DNA of 47,818 bases from Actinomycetes bacterium. GTDB lineage: Bacteria; Actinomycetota; Thermoleophilia; Gaiellales; F1-60-MAGs149. Location of the stretch: NCBI GenBank assembly GCA_025360225.1, contig JANYCN010000024.1, positions 1-47,818 of the forward strand, in the 5' to 3' direction. The notes beneath the pieces were generated by a model, which saw nothing but the letters and a program-made list of their open reading frames with translations, had not been told where the DNA came from and made no database searches. Positions 1 through 40,110 of the stretch are shown here, piece after piece. Position 1 is the first letter of the stretch. The number at the start of each line of letters is the position of its first letter. The translations under genes were made by a program, and so were the position numbers.

Positions 1-216
1 GCTCCGCCACCCGTCGGGTGGCTCTGCCAGCCAGCTGCGGCTTCGCGGGAACGTCGCGCGCCGCTTGACTTAGCGTGTCAAGGCCTTCGCCTTGACACGC
101 GTGCGAGCGGGCGTGCTATCCAGCACGCCCGCGATCAGCAAGCCCTGCGCGTCGCGCAACGCTCCCGCTCGCTCCAGACACCCAATGACCATGCCATTTC
201 ACAATCAAACCACTAG
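1..216 (+). repeat. Multi-hairpin inverted-repeat element, copy A (left end outside the window)
   Basis: This is the right part of a repeat whose complete copy is at 28741-29055. The right terminal repeat at 185-216 matches the reverse complement of the left end of that copy at 30 of 32 bases and ends in CTAG. Inside are the same perfect hairpins: a CCACCC/GGGTGG stem, a 12-bp stem GCGTGTCAAGGC with loop CTTC, and an 11-bp stem GCGGGCGTGCT with loop ATCC. The last is nested inside a GCGAGCGGG/CCCGCTCGC stem. It has no coding capacity. It behaves like a miniature inverted-repeat element (MITE); the mobilising enzyme is unknown, although a transposase tail lies 57 bases to the right. Confidence 0.8.
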
Positions 217-1930: not shown

Positions 1931-2695
1931 ATGGATCTCGGACTCGAAGGCCGGCGTGCGCTCGTGACCGGAGGGACAGAAGGTATTGGCCGCGCCGTGG
2001 CTCAGCGGCTTCTCGCGGCCGGCGCGCGGGTCGTGGTGATCGCGCGGGGCGTCGGCGCCCCGCCGGGAGCAACGCTCGTGCGCGCCGACCTGTCCGAGGC
2101 CGGTGGCGCTCGGTCGGCGATCGAAGGAGCGGTGGCCGAGCTTGACGGTTTGGACGTGCTCGTCAACAACGTCGGCGTTGCGCGCCAGACGACGCTCGCT
2201 GCGCTCGACGACGACGCGTGGGAGTCGTCCTTCCAGGTGAACCTGATGAGCTACGTTCGAACCGTGCGTCATGCCCTGCCGCACCTGCATCGGTCTGACC
2301 AGGCGCGCATCGTCAACGTCGCCTCGACTGCCGGCAAACGCCCGAGCACGGGGATGCCGGACTACAGCGTGATGAAGTCGGCGGTGCTGTCGTTCTCGCG
2401 GCTCGTGGCGGACACGGAGGCTGCCAACGGCGTGCTCTGCAACGCGGTCTGCCCCGGGCCGGTGCGAACGCCCGCGTGGCTCGCGGTTGGCGGGCTCGCC
2501 GACCAGGCGGCAGCGATGTCGGGCGCGTCGCGCGAGGCGGTGCTTGCCAAGGTGGGGGCGGGACGCCCGCTCGGCCGGATGGCTGAGGCGGACGAGATCG
2601 CAGACGTGATCGTCTTCCTCTGCTCCGCGCGGGCCTCCTACGTCACCGGTGCAGCATGGGGCGTCGACGGCGGCACCGTTCCCGTGATCATCTGA
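1931..2695 (+). CDS. SDR family NAD(P)-dependent oxidoreductase
   Basis: A classical short-chain dehydrogenase of 254 residues. The cofactor motif TGGTEGIG is at residues 13-20 and NNVG at 79-82. The catalytic set is Ser132 (NVAST), Tyr145 and Lys149 (YSVMK). The C-terminus has the usual SYVTGAAWGVDGG strand. Relatives reduce 3-oxoacyl groups or other ketones; the substrate is not evident. I chose the ATG at 1931 because the longer in-frame starts lie inside the divergent phosphatase gene; an ATG at 1877 is the nearest alternative. Confidence 0.87.
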   Translation: MDLGLEGRRALVTGGTEGIGRAVAQRLLAAGARVVVIARGVGAPPGATLVRADLSEAGGARSAIEGAVAELDGLDVLVNNVGVARQTTLAALDDDAWESSFQVNLMSYVRTVRHALPHLHRSDQARIVNVASTAGKRPSTGMPDYSVMKSAVLSFSRLVADTEAANGVLCNAVCPGPVRTPAWLAVGGLADQAAAMSGASREAVLAKVGAGRPLGRMAEADEIADVIVFLCSARASYVTGAAWGVDGGTVPVII

Positions 2696-2796
2696 CCGGC
2701 GTCGGCTCGGGCAACGGCGGGAGCGGCGGGGACGGCGGCCGCCCTCCGCGCGGGCCCAGCAAGCGCTGCAGGACGGCCGCCACCCGCGCCCGCTCC

Positions 2797-2853: not shown

Positions 2854-4434
2854 ATGGCCGCGCGCGTCTCGATCTACGACACCACCTTGCGTGACGGCAT
2901 GCAGGGCGAGGGCATGTCCCTCTCCGTCTCCGAGAAGGTGCAGGTCGCGCACCTGCTCGATGGCCTCGGCGTCGACCTCATCGAGGCGGGGTTCCCGGCG
3001 TCGAACCCGAAGGATCACGAGCTGTTCTCGCGGCTCGAACACGAGACGTTCCACCACGCCCGCATCGCCGCGTTCGGCATGACCCGTCGGCGTGACACCG
3101 TGGCGGCCGACGATGACGCGTTACGGCTCCTCGGCGCCTCGTTCTGTCCGGTGATCACGATCGTCGGGAAGACCTGGGACCTCCACCTTGAGAAGGTCGT
3201 CCGCGTCGGGCGCGATGAGAACCTGGCGATGATCGCTGACTCGGTCGAGTATCTCGTGGCGCAGGGCAAGGACGTCATCTACGACGCCGAGCACTTCTTC
3301 GACGGGTACGCCGCTGACCGTCATTTCGCGGTTCGTTGCGTCCAGGCCGCCGCCGCCGCCGGCGCGGTGAACGTGACGCTCTGCGACACGAACGGCGCGA
3401 CGCTCCCCGGAGCGATCGCGCGTGCGACGGCCGACGTCCTTGCCGCGCTCCCTGGCGTCGAGGTCGGAATCCACACCCACAACGATGCCGAGTGCGCGGT
3501 CGCGAACTCGCTCGCCGCTGTCGAGGTCGGCGCGCGCCTCGTTCAGGGCACCGTGAATGGCTACGGCGAGCGGTGTGGTAACGCGAACCTGATCGCGATC
3601 ATCGCGGGGCTGCAGCTCAAGCTCGGGTACGCCTGCATTGCCGCGGAGCAGCTTGCACGCCTGACGTCGGTGTCGCACGAGGTCGCGGAGCTGTGCAACC
3701 TCGCACCGGCGACGAGCGCTGCCTACGTGGGGCGGTCAGCGTTCGCGCACAAGGGCGGCATGCACGTCGCGGGCATGCAGGCCGACCCTCGGACGTTCGA
3801 GCACATCGAGCCGTCGCTCGTCGGCAACGCTCGCAACGTGCTCGTGTCCGAGCTCTCCGGCAAGGGGACCGTTCGCGAGAAGGCGGCGGCGTTCGGGATC
3901 GAGCTCGATGGCGCGGCCGTCGAACGCGCCCTCGAGCGCCTGAAGGTGCTCGAGCATCGCGGGTACGCGTACGAGGGCGCCGACGCGTCGTTCGAGCTCC
4001 TTCTCCGAGACGAGGCGGGCGAGATCGAGCCGCTCTTCCTGCTCGAGGCGTTGCGCGTGATCACCGAGAAGCGCGCTGACGGACGGGTCGAGACGGAGGC
4101 GACGATCAAGCTGCGCGTGCGCGGCGAGCGTGTCGTCCAGACGAGCGAGGGCAACGGGCCGGTCAACGCGCTCGACAGCGCGCTGCGAGCGGCTCTCGAG
4201 CGTCACTACCCCGGCATCAGCACGCTTGAGCTCGCCAACTACAAGGTCAGGATCCTGAACCAGCACTCCGGCACCGGGGCGGTGACGCGGGTGATTCTCG
4301 ACACGACGGACGGGCACGACGAGTGGGCGACCGTCGGCGTCTCCGCGAACATCATCGAGGCGTCGTGGGAGGCGCTCGTCGAGAGCCTGACCTATGGCGT
4401 GCGCCTCCGGCTCGCCGCACCCGCCGACGCGTGA
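2854..4434 (+). CDS. cimA: Citramalate synthase
   Basis: Condenses acetyl-CoA with pyruvate to (R)-citramalate, the first step of the threonine-independent route to 2-oxobutyrate and isoleucine. The 526-residue length and sequence fit the CimA branch of the LeuA/HMG-CoA-lyase family. The TIM barrel begins SIYDTTLRDGMQGEGMSLS, with catalytic Arg13 and metal Asp14. The second metal site is HTHNDAECAVANS, followed by GTVNGYGERCGNANL. The C-terminal third is the LeuA-type regulatory dimerisation domain (EATIKLRVRGERVVQTSEGN), where isoleucine feedback would act. The last codon shares one base with the next gene (TGATG). Confidence 0.93.
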   Translation: MAARVSIYDTTLRDGMQGEGMSLSVSEKVQVAHLLDGLGVDLIEAGFPASNPKDHELFSRLEHETFHHARIAAFGMTRRRDTVAADDDALRLLGASFCPVITIVGKTWDLHLEKVVRVGRDENLAMIADSVEYLVAQGKDVIYDAEHFFDGYAADRHFAVRCVQAAAAAGAVNVTLCDTNGATLPGAIARATADVLAALPGVEVGIHTHNDAECAVANSLAAVEVGARLVQGTVNGYGERCGNANLIAIIAGLQLKLGYACIAAEQLARLTSVSHEVAELCNLAPATSAAYVGRSAFAHKGGMHVAGMQADPRTFEHIEPSLVGNARNVLVSELSGKGTVREKAAAFGIELDGAAVERALERLKVLEHRGYAYEGADASFELLLRDEAGEIEPLFLLEALRVITEKRADGRVETEATIKLRVRGERVVQTSEGNGPVNALDSALRAALERHYPGISTLELANYKVRILNQHSGTGAVTRVILDTTDGHDEWATVGVSANIIEASWEALVESLTYGVRLRLAAPADA

Positions 4435-18189: not shown

Positions 18190-18224
18190 GCCGTTCCAGG
18201 CGGGTGCCGCTGTCGACGCTCGTG

Positions 18225-18488
18225 CACCGTCTCGAGGATACGCGGCCGTTCGAGCGCTGCGGAGCGGCGTCTGAAACCTCGCCCGGCAGGTCGGGACGAG
18301 AGCTGGGCAAGCAATGCTTGCGCAGCGTGCGAGGTGATCTGGTATTCACCAGATCACCGGGTCTCCAGCTCGGTCACGTGTGCGCGGGCGTGCTATCGCG
18401 CACTCCCGCGATCAGCAAGCTCCCTCGCTGTCGCTTGTCAGACGTGCTCCTAACGACGAACCACCAGGCACGTACAGATCAGACCACG
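18225..18488 (+). repeat. Multi-hairpin element, variant copy C
   Basis: This region shares GCGGGCGTGCTAT...CCGCGATCAGCAAGC with the complete element and ends with AGATCAGACCACGAG, like its right terminus. In place of the 12-bp hairpin of the other copies it has an unrelated perfect stem GGTGATCTGGT/ACCAGATCACC (18333-18358, loop ATTC). A further short stem GCAAGC/GCTTGC lies before it, and a CTCGCCCGGC-type hairpin is shared with 1195-1290. No gene is visible in 18190-18686 apart from the regulatory end. Confidence 0.6.
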
Positions 18489-18622
18489 AGACGCTGTCCT
18501 CGACGCGTCGCGGCCGGCTCGGCGACCGGTCAGCGGCATTCACACCCGCGACGACGGTGCCGCATCTGCGCCGTAGGCAGTCCTAATGTTCCGATCGAAA
18601 CTGCCGATCATATTGTGTAGAT

Positions 18623-26794: not shown

Positions 26795-28744
26795 GTGGAG
26801 ACCAAGCAACCACCCCGACTTCCCCCCGAGGCGCGCCTGTACTCGACGGCCGGTGACGGGCCGGTGCGCCCCGCGATGCGGGTGTACAAGGCGGAGAACG
26901 GGAAGCCGCCCAAGCGTCGAAAGCGCGGGTGGTTGCGGGTCGTAGCGTGGACGCTCCTGACGGTGGCGGTTGCGGCCGCCGCGCTCGTCGGCGTGCTCTG
27001 GTGGAAGGCGCGGCAGGCGACCGACGTGATCACCGCTGTGAGCACGCCTGGCGACCGCGCCGGCGTGAAGGCGACGAGCAGCGCACCGATCGCCGACACG
27101 GCGCCCGTGACGTTCCTGATCTTCGGTGTCGACACCCGCACCAGGCAGGACGGCGGCTCGCGCTCCGACACCGAGATCCTCGTACGCCTCGACCCGGTGA
27201 AGCAGACGTTGACGCAGCTCGCCTTCACCCGGGACTGGCTCGTGCACGTGCCTGGGTATCCGGGGTTGCGCCAGATCAACTCGGCGTTCGCCCTCGGCGG
27301 CGCCAAGCTCGCGATCGACACCCTGGCCGAGGCGACGGGCATCCGTCCGAACTACTACATCACGATCGACTTCAACGGCTTCAAGGCGGCGGTTGGCGCG
27401 TTCGGCGGAACGTACACCGAGGTCGACAAACGGTACTTCCATCGCAACAGCGGGACGGGCCTGCAGAACTACCTTTCGATCGACCTCCAGCCGGGGTACC
27501 AGCGGTTGGACGGCGCGAACGCTCTTGCCTTCGTCCGCTACCGTCACACCGACGACGACACGGTGCGCAACAGCCGCCAGCAACGGTTCCTCGCTGCCTT
27601 CAAGCGCGAAGCCGATCCGGTGGCGATCGGTACCAACGTCCTCAACCTGCTGAACATCGCGGAGCGCTACGTGAAGATCATCGGGCGGCGCCGAGCAGGG
27701 CCGGAGGACATCGCGCGTTGGGCGACGACGAGCCGCTCCATCCCGAAGCAGAACGTCATCAACGTCCGGTGCCAGTTCACGCCGGCGGTCTCTGATCGCA
27801 ACCGGGAGGCGATCGCTCCGGCCGATCTCCAGCGGTGCCTCGACGAGTTCAAGAACCCTGATCCGACGCTCGCCGCGCGCTCGGCGACCGTCACGGCAGG
27901 AGCAGGCGCCGATCCCGGGCCACACGTCGCGTTCGACCCGGCGGTCGTCCCGGTGGAGGTGCGCAACGGTAACGGGCGTGCGGGCGTCGCCGCGAGCGCC
28001 GCGAGCGGTCTGGTCAGCCAGGGCTGGAAGCACGCGTCATCCGCCGGCAACGCCGACGCCTCGAGCTACTTCCACACCGCGGTCTACTACGGTGGCGGAG
28101 CCACCGAGAAGGCCGCGGCGAGCGAGCTCGCGCGGATGTTCGCGCCGGCCGACCTGCAGCCGCTGACCGCAGCGATCGCGGCGCGGCTTGGCAAGGCCGG
28201 GCACGCGGTCGGGGCGAACGTCGTCATCGTTGTCGGCCAGTCGTTCACGGAGCTGCCGCCCGCAGTCCAGCGTCCCGTCGCGCCGGCCGTCAAAGCGAAC
28301 GTCCGTGCGGTTACGGGGCGCGACCTCGCGCGCTGGCGGGCCGCCGGGCACAAGCTCGGGCTCGCGATGTGGTACCCGACGAAGCTCCCGGTGGGCACGC
28401 AGACGATCGACCCGGGATTCGCGAACGACGTCAACCCGTTCCGAACGTACAAGGTGAACGGGCAGGCAGCCCTGCATGTGACCTACTGGGACCCGGCCTT
28501 GACCTACGGCACCTTCGGCGTCCAGGTTCTCGCCTGGGACTCGCCGCCGATCCTTGACGGACCGACGACGACGCGCGTGCGGAACGGCGTGACGTACAAC
28601 CTCTACTACAACGGAGGGAAGCTCGACCGCGTCGCCTGGCGCACCGACGCTGCCTGGTTCTGGCTCTCGAACACGCTGATCGACGAGCTGCCGAACTCGA
28701 CGATGTGGGCGGTCGCGACGAGCTTCGTCCGTGTTCCGGCCTAG
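26795..28744 (+). CDS. LytR-CpsA-Psr (LCP) family protein with an added C-terminal domain
   Basis: Envelope enzyme attaching anionic glycopolymers to peptidoglycan; 649 residues. A basic cytosolic start is followed by one membrane helix (WTLLTVAVAAAALVGVLWW, about residues 49-67). The LCP domain runs from about 105 to 270 (FLIFGVDTR, SDTEILVRLDP, TRDW, VRYRHTDDDTVRNSRQQRFL). A LytR_C domain follows at about 385-485 (VEVRNGNGRAGVAASAA). After it lies an extra region of about 160 residues (ARWRAAGHKLGLAMWYPTKL to the end) not usual in LCP proteins. The GTG at 26795 gives this length; ATG 26876 is possible. Its stop codon lies in the CTAG of the adjacent repeat element. Confidence 0.87.
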   Translation: METKQPPRLPPEARLYSTAGDGPVRPAMRVYKAENGKPPKRRKRGWLRVVAWTLLTVAVAAAALVGVLWWKARQATDVITAVSTPGDRAGVKATSSAPIADTAPVTFLIFGVDTRTRQDGGSRSDTEILVRLDPVKQTLTQLAFTRDWLVHVPGYPGLRQINSAFALGGAKLAIDTLAEATGIRPNYYITIDFNGFKAAVGAFGGTYTEVDKRYFHRNSGTGLQNYLSIDLQPGYQRLDGANALAFVRYRHTDDDTVRNSRQQRFLAAFKREADPVAIGTNVLNLLNIAERYVKIIGRRRAGPEDIARWATTSRSIPKQNVINVRCQFTPAVSDRNREAIAPADLQRCLDEFKNPDPTLAARSATVTAGAGADPGPHVAFDPAVVPVEVRNGNGRAGVAASAASGLVSQGWKHASSAGNADASSYFHTAVYYGGGATEKAAASELARMFAPADLQPLTAAIAARLGKAGHAVGANVVIVVGQSFTELPPAVQRPVAPAVKANVRAVTGRDLARWRAAGHKLGLAMWYPTKLPVGTQTIDPGFANDVNPFRTYKVNGQAALHVTYWDPALTYGTFGVQVLAWDSPPILDGPTTTRVRNGVTYNLYYNGGKLDRVAWRTDAAWFWLSNTLIDELPNSTMWAVATSFVRVPA

Positions 28745-29055
28745 TGGTCTGATTGTGAAATGGCGTGGTCATTCGACTGCCTGGATCGTCCTGCGCTTGC
28801 CGGCTCTGCCACCCGTCGGGTGGCTACGCCGCTCAGCTCCGGCGACCGCGATCCGGCCCGCTCTGCGTGCCGGATCGTGGGCTTCGCGGGAACGTCGCGT
28901 GCCGCTTGCACTTAGCGTGTCAAGGCCTTCGCCTTGACACGCGTGCGAGCGGGCGTGCTATCCAGCACGCCCGCGATCAGCAAGCCCTGCGCGACGCGCA
29001 ACGCTCCCGCTCGCTCCAGACGCCCGATGACGATGCCATCTCACAATCCCACTAC
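28741..29055 (+). mobile_element. Complete multi-hairpin inverted-repeat element (MITE-like), copy D
   Basis: The reference copy, 315 bases with CTAG at the left and CTAC at the right end. Terminal repeats of about 32 bases pair (28741-28772 with 29024-29055). Between them are four perfect hairpins. CGATCCGGC/GCCGGATCG occupies 28849-28857 and 28869-28877. GCGTGTCAAGGC occupies 28915-28926 with its partner 28931-28942. GCGGGCGTGCT occupies 28949-28959 with its partner 28964-28974. GCCACCCG/CGGGTGGC lies at 28808-28824. An outer stem pairs 28945-28953 with 29006-29014. It has no open frame of note and lies between the convergent ends of the LCP and anti-sigma genes. Confidence 0.8.
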
Positions 29056-35651: not shown

Positions 35652-36730
35652 ACCGGCACCGTAAACCGCGACGGCGAGAACGGCGTCGTCAGCGGGCTCG
35701 GTGATCGGCCGGCGACCTCGGCACTGATCGCGTCGACGACGAGCGGCAGGAGAAGCACTCCGTGACGGAACCCGCCGGTGGCCCAGATCACGCCAGCGTC
35801 GTCACGGCCCAGCAGCGGCCGGAGGTCGACCGTCGCCGGCCGCAGGCCGGCTGCGACGGTCGCGAGGCGCGCGTCCGCGAGCCCCGGCGCGAGCCTCACC
35901 GCCTCCTCGAGCAGGCCGAGCACCCCGTCTACCGTGACGTCCGTGTCGCTCTGCTCCTCCTGGGTCGCGCCCACCACCACCGTCCCGTCCGCGCGCGGGA
36001 CGACGTATGCCCCGGGCGTTCGGACGATGCGATCGATGCCGAGCGACCGACCGCCGCGTGGCGCAAGCGTGACGATCTGCCCTTTCACCGGACGGACCCG
36101 GCCGCGCAAGCCGAGACGGCCGGATCCCGCCCCGGCCGCGATCACCACCGCGCCGGCAGCGAGGAGCGGATCATCGAGCGACGTGATCGATGCCTCCCGT
36201 CGGTCAACGGCGGCGCGGGCGAGCGCCTGATCGAGCGCCTGAAGGAGCAGTCGAGGGTCGACGGAGTGCTCGTCCTCGAGCGCGATCCCACCGCTGACTG
36301 CGGGACCGATCGCCGGAACGAGCCGGGAGACCTCCTCGTGGTCGATCCACGGCTGCTCGTACCCGTCACGAGCGAGGATCGAGCGCAGGCGCTCGACGGC
36401 GCCGTGGTGCTCAGGGCGGCTCGCCACGAACACCGAGCCGGTTCGATGGTATCCCACGCTCGCGCCGCTCGCGGCCTCGATCCGAGCGGCGAGGGCTGGC
36501 CAGTCCCTGGCGCAAGCATGGAGCGCCGACGGCAGCTGATCCTCACCGTCGTCGACCTTCTCCGACCACGGACAGAGCATGCCGGCTGCGATCTCGGCTG
36601 TCGCCGGACGCCCGTCGCCAACCAGGCGTACGGAAGCGCCATCCAGGGACAGACGAAACGCGATCGCACGGCCCCAGGCACCGGCGCCGACCACCACGAC
36701 GTCCGGACGTTTGCTGTGCGATGCGGTCAC
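35648..36730 (-). CDS. thiO: Glycine oxidase
   Basis: An FAD-dependent oxidase producing the imine of glycine for thiazole formation; 360 residues. The N-terminal dinucleotide fold is DVVVVGAGAWGRAIAFRLS. The C-terminal DAO-type signature is TVAAGLRPATVDLRPLLGRD with ATGGFRHGVLLLPL. Starts at GTG 36730, three bases after a GGGAG ribosome-binding site that is part of the TPP riboswitch. It is the first gene of a chain joined by 4-base overlaps. Confidence 0.93.
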
Positions 36731-36734
36731 GAGC

Positions 36735-36810
36735 TCCCTTCGCTGGTACGAGCCAGAGCAGGTTCCGCGGTCGCGGCACGTGCCGCCTCTCAGCCTCAAC
36801 GAGGCTCCCG
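36735..36810 (-). promoter_or_regulatory. TPP riboswitch (THI element)
   Basis: On the minus strand the conserved blocks are in order: CTGAGA (36793-36788) after GGGAGCCTCGTTGAGG, the GAACCTG block (36765-36759) and the CCAGCGAAGGGA block (36746-36735). The last block includes the GGGAG that would serve as the thiO ribosome-binding site, so ligand binding would hide it and stop translation (known mechanism for this class; inferred here). Confidence 0.93.
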
Positions 36811-36864
36811 CGCTCGCATCGAAGCGTACCGGATGGGCGACGCGACGGTCGCCGAGGCCGAGCC

Positions 36865-39958: not shown

Positions 39959-39979
39959 TACGTCAGGCGCGTCGACCTG

Positions 39980-40075
39980 GTGGTCTTGATTGGGAGATCG
40001 CGGTCATCCGGCTGCCTGGTTCGTCCTGCGCATGCTGGGACACCCAATGACCATGCCATCTCGCAGTCAGACCAC
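39980..40075 (+). repeat. Multi-hairpin element, copy E (ends only)
   Basis: 96 bases consisting of the left end (GTGGTCTTGATTGGGAGATC and CTGCCTGGTTCGTCCTGCGC) joined directly to the right end (GACACCCAATGACCATGCCA, then GTCAGACCAC). All internal hairpins are deleted. The two termini remain imperfectly complementary. It lies between the convergent ends of hppA and hom. Confidence 0.75.
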
Positions 40076-40110
40076 GAGCTTCCCGCCGCGGCCGGAAGCT
40101 GCCGCCGCGC

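What the first reader, a model, noticed from the sequence alone, without database searches (positions are those of the whole stretch)
28741..29055. A multi-hairpin inverted-repeat element family with CTAG ends
The complete copy has about 32-base terminal inverted repeats and at least four internal perfect hairpins, one nested in an outer stem. The copies at 1-216, 1009-1105 and 39980-40075 are truncated or internally deleted versions, and 18225-18488 is a variant. All are in the same orientation and lie outside intact genes. The hairpins are seen directly; that the family is mobile or a structural RNA/DNA element is inference.
Basis: partly seen in the sequence, partly recalled or inferred. 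Interest (0 to 1): 0.85.

Follow-up and report, generated by a model that had tools for sequence, protein, structure and literature searches.

The report
Transposons sharing a three-armed folded core
The repeat is one of at least a hundred copies of a small gene-less jumping DNA element that often inserts at gene stop codons, and it carries a three-armed folded core that relatives keep by matched base changes even though their ends differ, which suggests that the fold itself helps the element spread.

Summary
The 312-nt element at 28744-29055 folds far better than shuffles (z -11.4), and its genome holds 223 matches to its end sequence (0 in a control).

It is a MITE-like non-autonomous DNA transposon: about 30-bp terminal inverted repeats, TA target inside CTAG, no gene found. 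In 21 of 53 copies a junction forms the TAG stop codon of a neighbouring gene; in three, both convergent genes' stops, as TA duplication predicts.

The unexpected part is the interior. The same core occurs in six other genomes of the order (two weakly), inside elements with other terminal repeats and partly other targets. One relative has an IS5-family transposase with a matching end. Across three families covariation far exceeds shuffled and slid controls; GA/GAA and GNA/GNA internal loops are conserved, and G-U exceeds A-C about 2:1 on that strand only.

Individual copies decay without compensation, so selection seems to act on element lineages. RNA versus single-stranded DNA is unresolved, and family A's transposase was not found. 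The 18225-18488 'variant' is a separate family sharing a hairpin module; the same-orientation claim fails genome-wide.

The parts
28742..28743 (.). TA target base pairs inside CTAG (28741-28744); with the first G of the element they form the TAG stop codon (28742-28744) of the gene ending there
   Evidence: sequence; gene call 26882..28744
28744..29055 (-). complete family A element, 312 nt; the better-folding, presumably functional strand is the minus strand
   Evidence: R3 hit 28783-29017 minus, 129 bits
28744..28775 (+). left terminal inverted repeat
   Evidence: 223 matches genome-wide
29025..29055 (-). right terminal inverted repeat (this copy has CACTAC in place of GACCAC at its tip and GAG, not TAG, beyond)
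28783..29017 (-). three-armed core, interrupted by module M in arm P3
   Evidence: R3 covariance-model match, 128.9 bits
28786..28845 (-). arm P1 with conserved GNA/GNA internal loop and bulged A (minus strand) at its base
28846..28880 (-). arm P2, near-perfect hairpin
28881..29014 (-). arm P3 with conserved GA/GAA internal loop (minus strand) at its base; its tip holds module M
28914..28978 (.). module M: two perfect hairpins (28915-28942, 28949-28974), absent from many A copies and shared with family B
1..216 (-). truncated family A copy at the contig end, right end CCACTAG at 210-216
   Evidence: R3 33-175 minus, 52 bits
1012..1105 (-). internally deleted family A copy with right end
   Evidence: R3 967-1109 minus, 43 bits
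39977..40078 (.). short internally deleted family A copy with both ends (CTGGTGG.. / ..CCACGAG)
18219..18490 (+). family B element (left end CTC-GTGCACCGTCTCG) with an A-type right end; shares hairpin 2 of module M; no core

Best explanation
The element is a MITE-like non-autonomous DNA transposon. A transposase supplied in trans recognises its roughly 30-bp terminal inverted repeats and inserts it at TA within CTAG. In this 70% GC genome CTAG is rare and fairly often lies at a gene's TAG stop codon; because TA is duplicated and the element begins with G, the stop codon is rebuilt and the insertion does little harm. Homologues in other genera keep this core while their ends, and in part their targets, change. 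I infer that the fold is kept because it helps the element itself (transposition, maturation or protection), as an RNA or a specific DNA single strand, and not because the host uses each copy. Shown: repeat structure, copy number, target, stop-codon placement, core homology with covariation, and an end matching family C next to an IS5-family transposase gene. Inferred: transposition in trans for family A, and what the core does.
For: Copies and ends. TA in CTAG, no longer duplication. Abutting elements share one TA: L018, L166, L167. Stop codons: 21 of 53 G000 and 8 of 11 G003 elements form a neighbour's TAG at a junction, and in L104, L133 and L138 both convergent genes end this way, as expected from one CTAG with TA duplicated. 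Same three-arm plan with different arm tips in two genera. Third family with other ends and TTA/TAA duplications, and an IS5-family gene with end TTA|GAACTCATTGCAGAATGA, 17 of 18 bases like family C's GAACTCATTTCAGAATGA. Covariation 0.310 against 0.131 +/- 0.011 shuffled and at most 0.081 slid; 92.9% of cells paired. Core hits in 7 of 399 genomes of the class, all in this order. Copies decay independently: double changes 18 against 17.5 expected.
Against: No transposase with family A's ends was found in G000, which is a fragmented draft. No empty site from a close strain was available. A fifth of ends have CTC in place of CTA, which simple TA duplication does not explain. The shuffle control does not remove relatedness, and there are essentially three independent families. 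Inverted repeats can also be kept matched by template switching between arms; L015 shows an inverted loop of that kind.
Confidence: 0.75

Rival explanations
1. The core is a functional RNA of the mobile element, transcribed from the minus strand, and needed for the element's spread, for example by binding the transposase or by acting on transcripts.
For: Minus strand folds better in 49 of 51 copies of three families. Across families G-U against A-C is 147:75 on the minus fold and 96:109 on the plus fold. Conserved purine internal loops GA/GAA and GNA/GNA and a bulged A on that strand.
Against: No transcript data, no promoter or terminator identified. No Rfam match on either strand. Among copies of one genome the small excess runs the other way (plus-strand G-T 112 against A-C 78). 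Sheared G-A loops are also stable in DNA (my knowledge).
Confidence: 0.4
2. The fold acts as DNA: one strand of the element folds when single-stranded, for example during replication-coupled excision, and this helps or protects transposition.
For: Very stable folding of one strand; hairpin turnover typical of single-stranded intermediates, namely an inverted loop (L015) and tandem arm copies (L043, L085).
Against: The G-U preference across families is better explained by RNA. Elements made of terminal repeats only, 69-72 nt, also exist, so the core is not strictly needed for movement, unless these are deletions after insertion.
Confidence: 0.3
3. An ordinary MITE whose hairpins are kept by mutation mechanisms only (template switching between arms, recombination of hairpins between families), without selection on the core.
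For: Hairpin module M is shared by unrelated families A and B; hairpins are lost and gained as units; loop inversion and tandem arms occur. Copies show no compensation beyond chance.
Against: Arm bases and unpaired loop bases (GA/GAA, GNA/GNA, bulged A, AGGACGATCC) are conserved between genera, which arm correction would not produce; strand asymmetry.
Confidence: 0.22
4. A host-used gene-end element, such as a bidirectional transcription terminator or mRNA 3' stabiliser.
For: Copies lie at gene 3' ends, often exactly at the stop codon, and very rarely between divergent genes.
Against: Placement is largely explained by a CTAG target and loss of insertions inside genes. Orientation relative to the gene whose stop they form is even, 14 to 13 (tallied). 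Copies decay without compensation. No T-run follows the outer stem (sequence).
Confidence: 0.07

Closest known systems
MITEs derived from IS elements, for example MITEPsy1 of Pseudomonas syringae (100 nt, 18-nt terminal repeats, inserts at CTAG or YTAA with 4-nt duplication, IS5-related; PMC3189936)
   Same: Short, non-coding, terminal inverted repeats, target CTAG, many copies, presumed movement by an IS transposase in trans
   Different: Here a three-armed core is conserved across genera inside differing ends; TA rather than four bases is duplicated as far as seen
IS630-family elements with CTAG target (IS870: title of Fournier et al. 1993, seen only as a citation in PMC6471742)
   Same: CTAG target and use of the target to make a TAG stop; the G003 IS630 element does this for its own transposase
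   Different: The family A element has no gene, and no IS630 transposase was found in its genome
Correia elements of Neisseria and other TA-flanked MITEs (compared by the authors of PMC4853749 with Thiomargarita MITEs)
   Same: Terminal repeats, TA-type ends, long hairpins, intergenic, over 100 copies
   Different: No conserved multi-arm core across genera is known to me for them
Stem-loop repeat families of bacterial genomes (92 families, PMC2267715)
   Same: Repeated intergenic sequences with a common predicted fold, possibly acting as RNA
   Different: Here ends, target and covariation across genera are established
Transposons with internal structured RNA (IS110 bridge RNA, IS200/IS605 omega RNA; my knowledge)
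   Same: A conserved strand-specific fold inside a transposable element
   Different: Those are not elements with long terminal inverted repeats and TA/TNA duplication; no Rfam match here

Membership tests
MITE (non-autonomous IS derivative) | terminal inverted repeats | tested here: met
   about 30 bp, 223 matches genome-wide
MITE (non-autonomous IS derivative) | short target duplication | tested here: inconclusive
   TA on both sides in 22 of 53 copies as CTA/TAG, convergent stop codons and shared TA support it; no empty site seen; CTC at a fifth of ends
MITE (non-autonomous IS derivative) | no transposase gene, under about 500 bp, high copy number | tested here: met
   69-374 nt, length changes and whole-hairpin deletions rule out a conserved reading frame
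MITE (non-autonomous IS derivative) | autonomous partner with matching ends | tested here: inconclusive
   family C: IS5-family gene (frameshifted, right end not located) with one matching end; family A: none found in a fragmented draft
IS630-derived | TA target and IS630 transposase with the same ends | tested here: inconclusive
   TA/CTAG target met for A; no IS630 transposase in G000; the G003 IS630 has other ends, GTGTCCTGTCGC
IS5-derived | IS5-family transposase with the same ends; three-base TNA duplication (one IS5 group inserts at three nucleotides, PMC2516522) | tested here: inconclusive
   supported for C (TTA, TAA) and for D by its TGA duplication; not shown for A
IS200/IS605-type single-strand elements | no terminal inverted repeats, no target duplication | tested here: not met
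   long terminal inverted repeats present
REP/REPIN | 20-40 nt palindromes linked to a RAYT transposase | tested here: not met
   312-nt unit with terminal repeats; RAYT itself was not searched for
Known Rfam RNA families | match at gathering score | tested here: not met
   none over the element; weak matches only at E 1.6 and 3

The most novel reading that the evidence does not exclude
A previously undescribed structured RNA (or strand-specific DNA fold), conserved within one bacterial order, is carried by non-autonomous DNA transposons and is kept through changes of terminal repeats, targets and probably transposase type; these DDE-type elements would depend on an internal folded nucleic acid for their spread.
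Probability: 0.35. Interest if true: 0.85.

Novelty: new variant of a known kind. Interest (0 to 1): 0.62.

Why it matters
MITEs are usually seen as empty shells with ends that a transposase recognises. A core kept by matched changes in several genera, inside different ends, would mean that some cut-and-paste transposons carry a functional folded nucleic acid, as known so far mainly for IS110, IS200/IS605 and introns. The stop-codon placement also shows how an element can settle at gene ends without breaking the gene and reach a hundred copies in a compact genome. The families give ready material for testing what the fold does.

Tried and rejected
Exact terminal-repeat pattern in genome contigs: no match. 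Core pattern in genome contigs: repeated only in Bin_62_12, which has G003's contig lengths; single hits elsewhere look like chance. Viral contigs, phages, plasmids: none. IS630 transposase in G000: none. Target duplication beyond TA: chance-level identity. CTC ends as age-related decay of CTA: no relation to divergence seen. First RNA alignment (A1) misaligned the P1/P2 boundary and was dropped; anchored alignments A2-A4 replaced it. Compensation among copies of one genome: none. Module M as an independent mobile unit: found only inside A and B elements in the fetched loci. Cis-regulatory role with orientation bias: 14 to 13, none. Rfam weak matches (CC1840, CRISPR-DR12) far below threshold, rejected. 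My notebook says 'about 25 of 53' copies form a stop codon; the recount is 21.

Full report
1. Observation. The window is G000:C77 of a 3.24-Mb, 89-contig draft genome (97% complete; 70% GC in the window). The element at 28744-29055 is preceded by CTA and folds as one continuous branched structure (-189.9 kcal/mol, z -11.4). It belongs to a large family: 40 places were scored as long or partial copies, and the terminal repeat GTGGTCTGATTGTGAAATGGC has 109 forward and 114 reverse matches with up to three mismatches against none for the reversed control, which means at least about a hundred copies. Many contigs begin or end inside a copy. The copies at 1-216, 1012-1105 and 39977-40078 are truncated or deleted. 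The one at 18219-18490 belongs to a second family, B, with other ends and no core, about eight long copies. Orientation is mixed among fetched copies (28:26).

2. Transposon anatomy. Fetched copies with both ends range from 69-72 nt (terminal repeats only) to 374 nt. The outer flank is CTA at 115 of 179 ends and CTC at 38; there is no duplication beyond TA. Where two elements abut they share one TA (L018, L166, L167). In the relative G003 an IS630-family element (NCBIfam E 1e-82) with ends C-TA-GTGTCC sits at the TA flank of a core element, and the TAG stop codon of its transposase comes from that CTAG. No IS630 transposase was found in G000. G000 does hold an IS5-family fragment (L223) whose end GGACTC|TAA lies inside a family A core.

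3. Stop codons. With a simple codon-usage gene caller, 21 of 53 G000 elements and 8 of 11 G003 elements have a neighbouring gene ending exactly at the TAG formed by the target TA and the element's terminal G. In L104, L133 and L138 both convergent genes end this way, which is expected if they overlapped at one CTAG whose TA was duplicated. CTAG sites next to elements lie at a stop codon in 44 of 134 cases; other CTAG sites in 16 of 98, and inside genes in 38 of 98. Target choice plus loss of harmful insertions can therefore account for most of the placement.

4. The core. Consensus folds of G000 and G003 show the same plan: an outer stem and three arms, with arm bases alike in sequence and arm tips completely different yet still paired. 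A covariance model from both (R1) found further multi-copy elements in G072 and G073, in another family of the same order. These 245-nt elements (family C) end in GAGCTCGAATCAGAATGAGCG or GAACTCATTTCAGAATGAGCG, with TTA or TAA on both sides in four of six copies. In G073 an IS5-family transposase gene, frameshifted, follows TTA|GAACTCATTGCAGAATGA; its right end was not located. A model of all three families (R3) hit seven of 399 genomes of the class, all in this order. Three of them hold single copies, each inside still other terminal repeats: G001 (E 3e-6, TGA on both sides), and, weakly, G054 (E 7e-4) and G121 (E 8e-3).

5. Strand. The minus strand folds better in 49 of 51 copies, and most individual minus-strand core folds of the three families give one plan. 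Its conserved internal loops are GC-GA-GCGGG / CCCGC-GAA-GC in P3, and TCGCC-GNA / GNA-GG-A-CGA in P1 (GGA with GCA in A and G003, GCA with GAA in C). On alignment A4 the 41 pairs score 0.310 for covariation against 0.131 +/- 0.011 for shuffles and at most 0.081 for slid structures; 92.9% of cells are paired, and 80 cells changed on both sides against 32. The shuffles do not preserve relatedness and there are essentially three independent families, so the number of independent events is small; the slid controls argue against an alignment artefact. When pairs are defined in one family and read in the others, G-U against A-C is 147:75 on the minus fold and 96:109 on the plus fold.

6. Level of selection. 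Among 35 copies of G000, double changes are at the level expected from independent decay (18 against 17.5), and the small excess of G-T (112) over A-C (78) on the plus fold runs against an RNA read from the minus strand; paired positions change less than unpaired ones (0.051 against 0.131). I read this as selection on lineages that move, followed by decay of inserted copies. This is inference.

7. Turnover. Copies lack or gain whole hairpins cleanly. Module M (28914-28978) takes the place of a short loop in arm P3 and also occurs in family B. L015 shows an inverted loop; L043 and L085 show tandem copies of an arm.

8. Verdict. Transposon nature is well supported (about 0.9). The core as a selected structure is likely (about 0.75). 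RNA rather than DNA is open (0.4 against 0.3). Compared with known MITEs the new point is the conserved core inside changing ends. I found no description of it in the searches made, which cover only open-licence papers.

Noticed in passing
ends of A and B elements in G000: The base before the terminal GTG is C instead of A at 38 of 179 ends (CTC), independently at the two ends, in families A and B, hardly ever in G003, and without relation to copy age. Unexplained.
   Followed up: partly
L223 (G000:C26 1-470): IS5-family transposase fragment whose end GAAACGGACTC|TAA lies inside a family A core.
   Followed up: partly
L069 1168-2340 (G003:C34): IS630-family element whose transposase takes its TAG stop codon from the CTAG target.
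   Followed up: yes
window 2685-2796, minus strand: Weak R3 match (23 bits, E 0.01) just after a gene end, possibly an old remnant of the core.
   Followed up: no
window 28914-28978; family B copies: Hairpin module M is shared by two otherwise unrelated element families, at different positions.
   Followed up: partly
L015, L043, L085: Hairpin loop inversion and tandem triplication of an arm, signs of template switching at hairpins.
   Followed up: no
many contig ends of G000: The draft assembly breaks inside element copies, so recent copies and any autonomous partner may be missing from it.
   Followed up: no
window 36718-36821, minus strand: TPP riboswitch (Rfam, 63.6 bits).
   Followed up: no
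window 2985-3062, minus strand: ARAGORN calls a tRNA-Ser (cga) here, overlapping a predicted gene on the other strand; Rfam's tRNA model does not list it at its gathering score.
   Followed up: no
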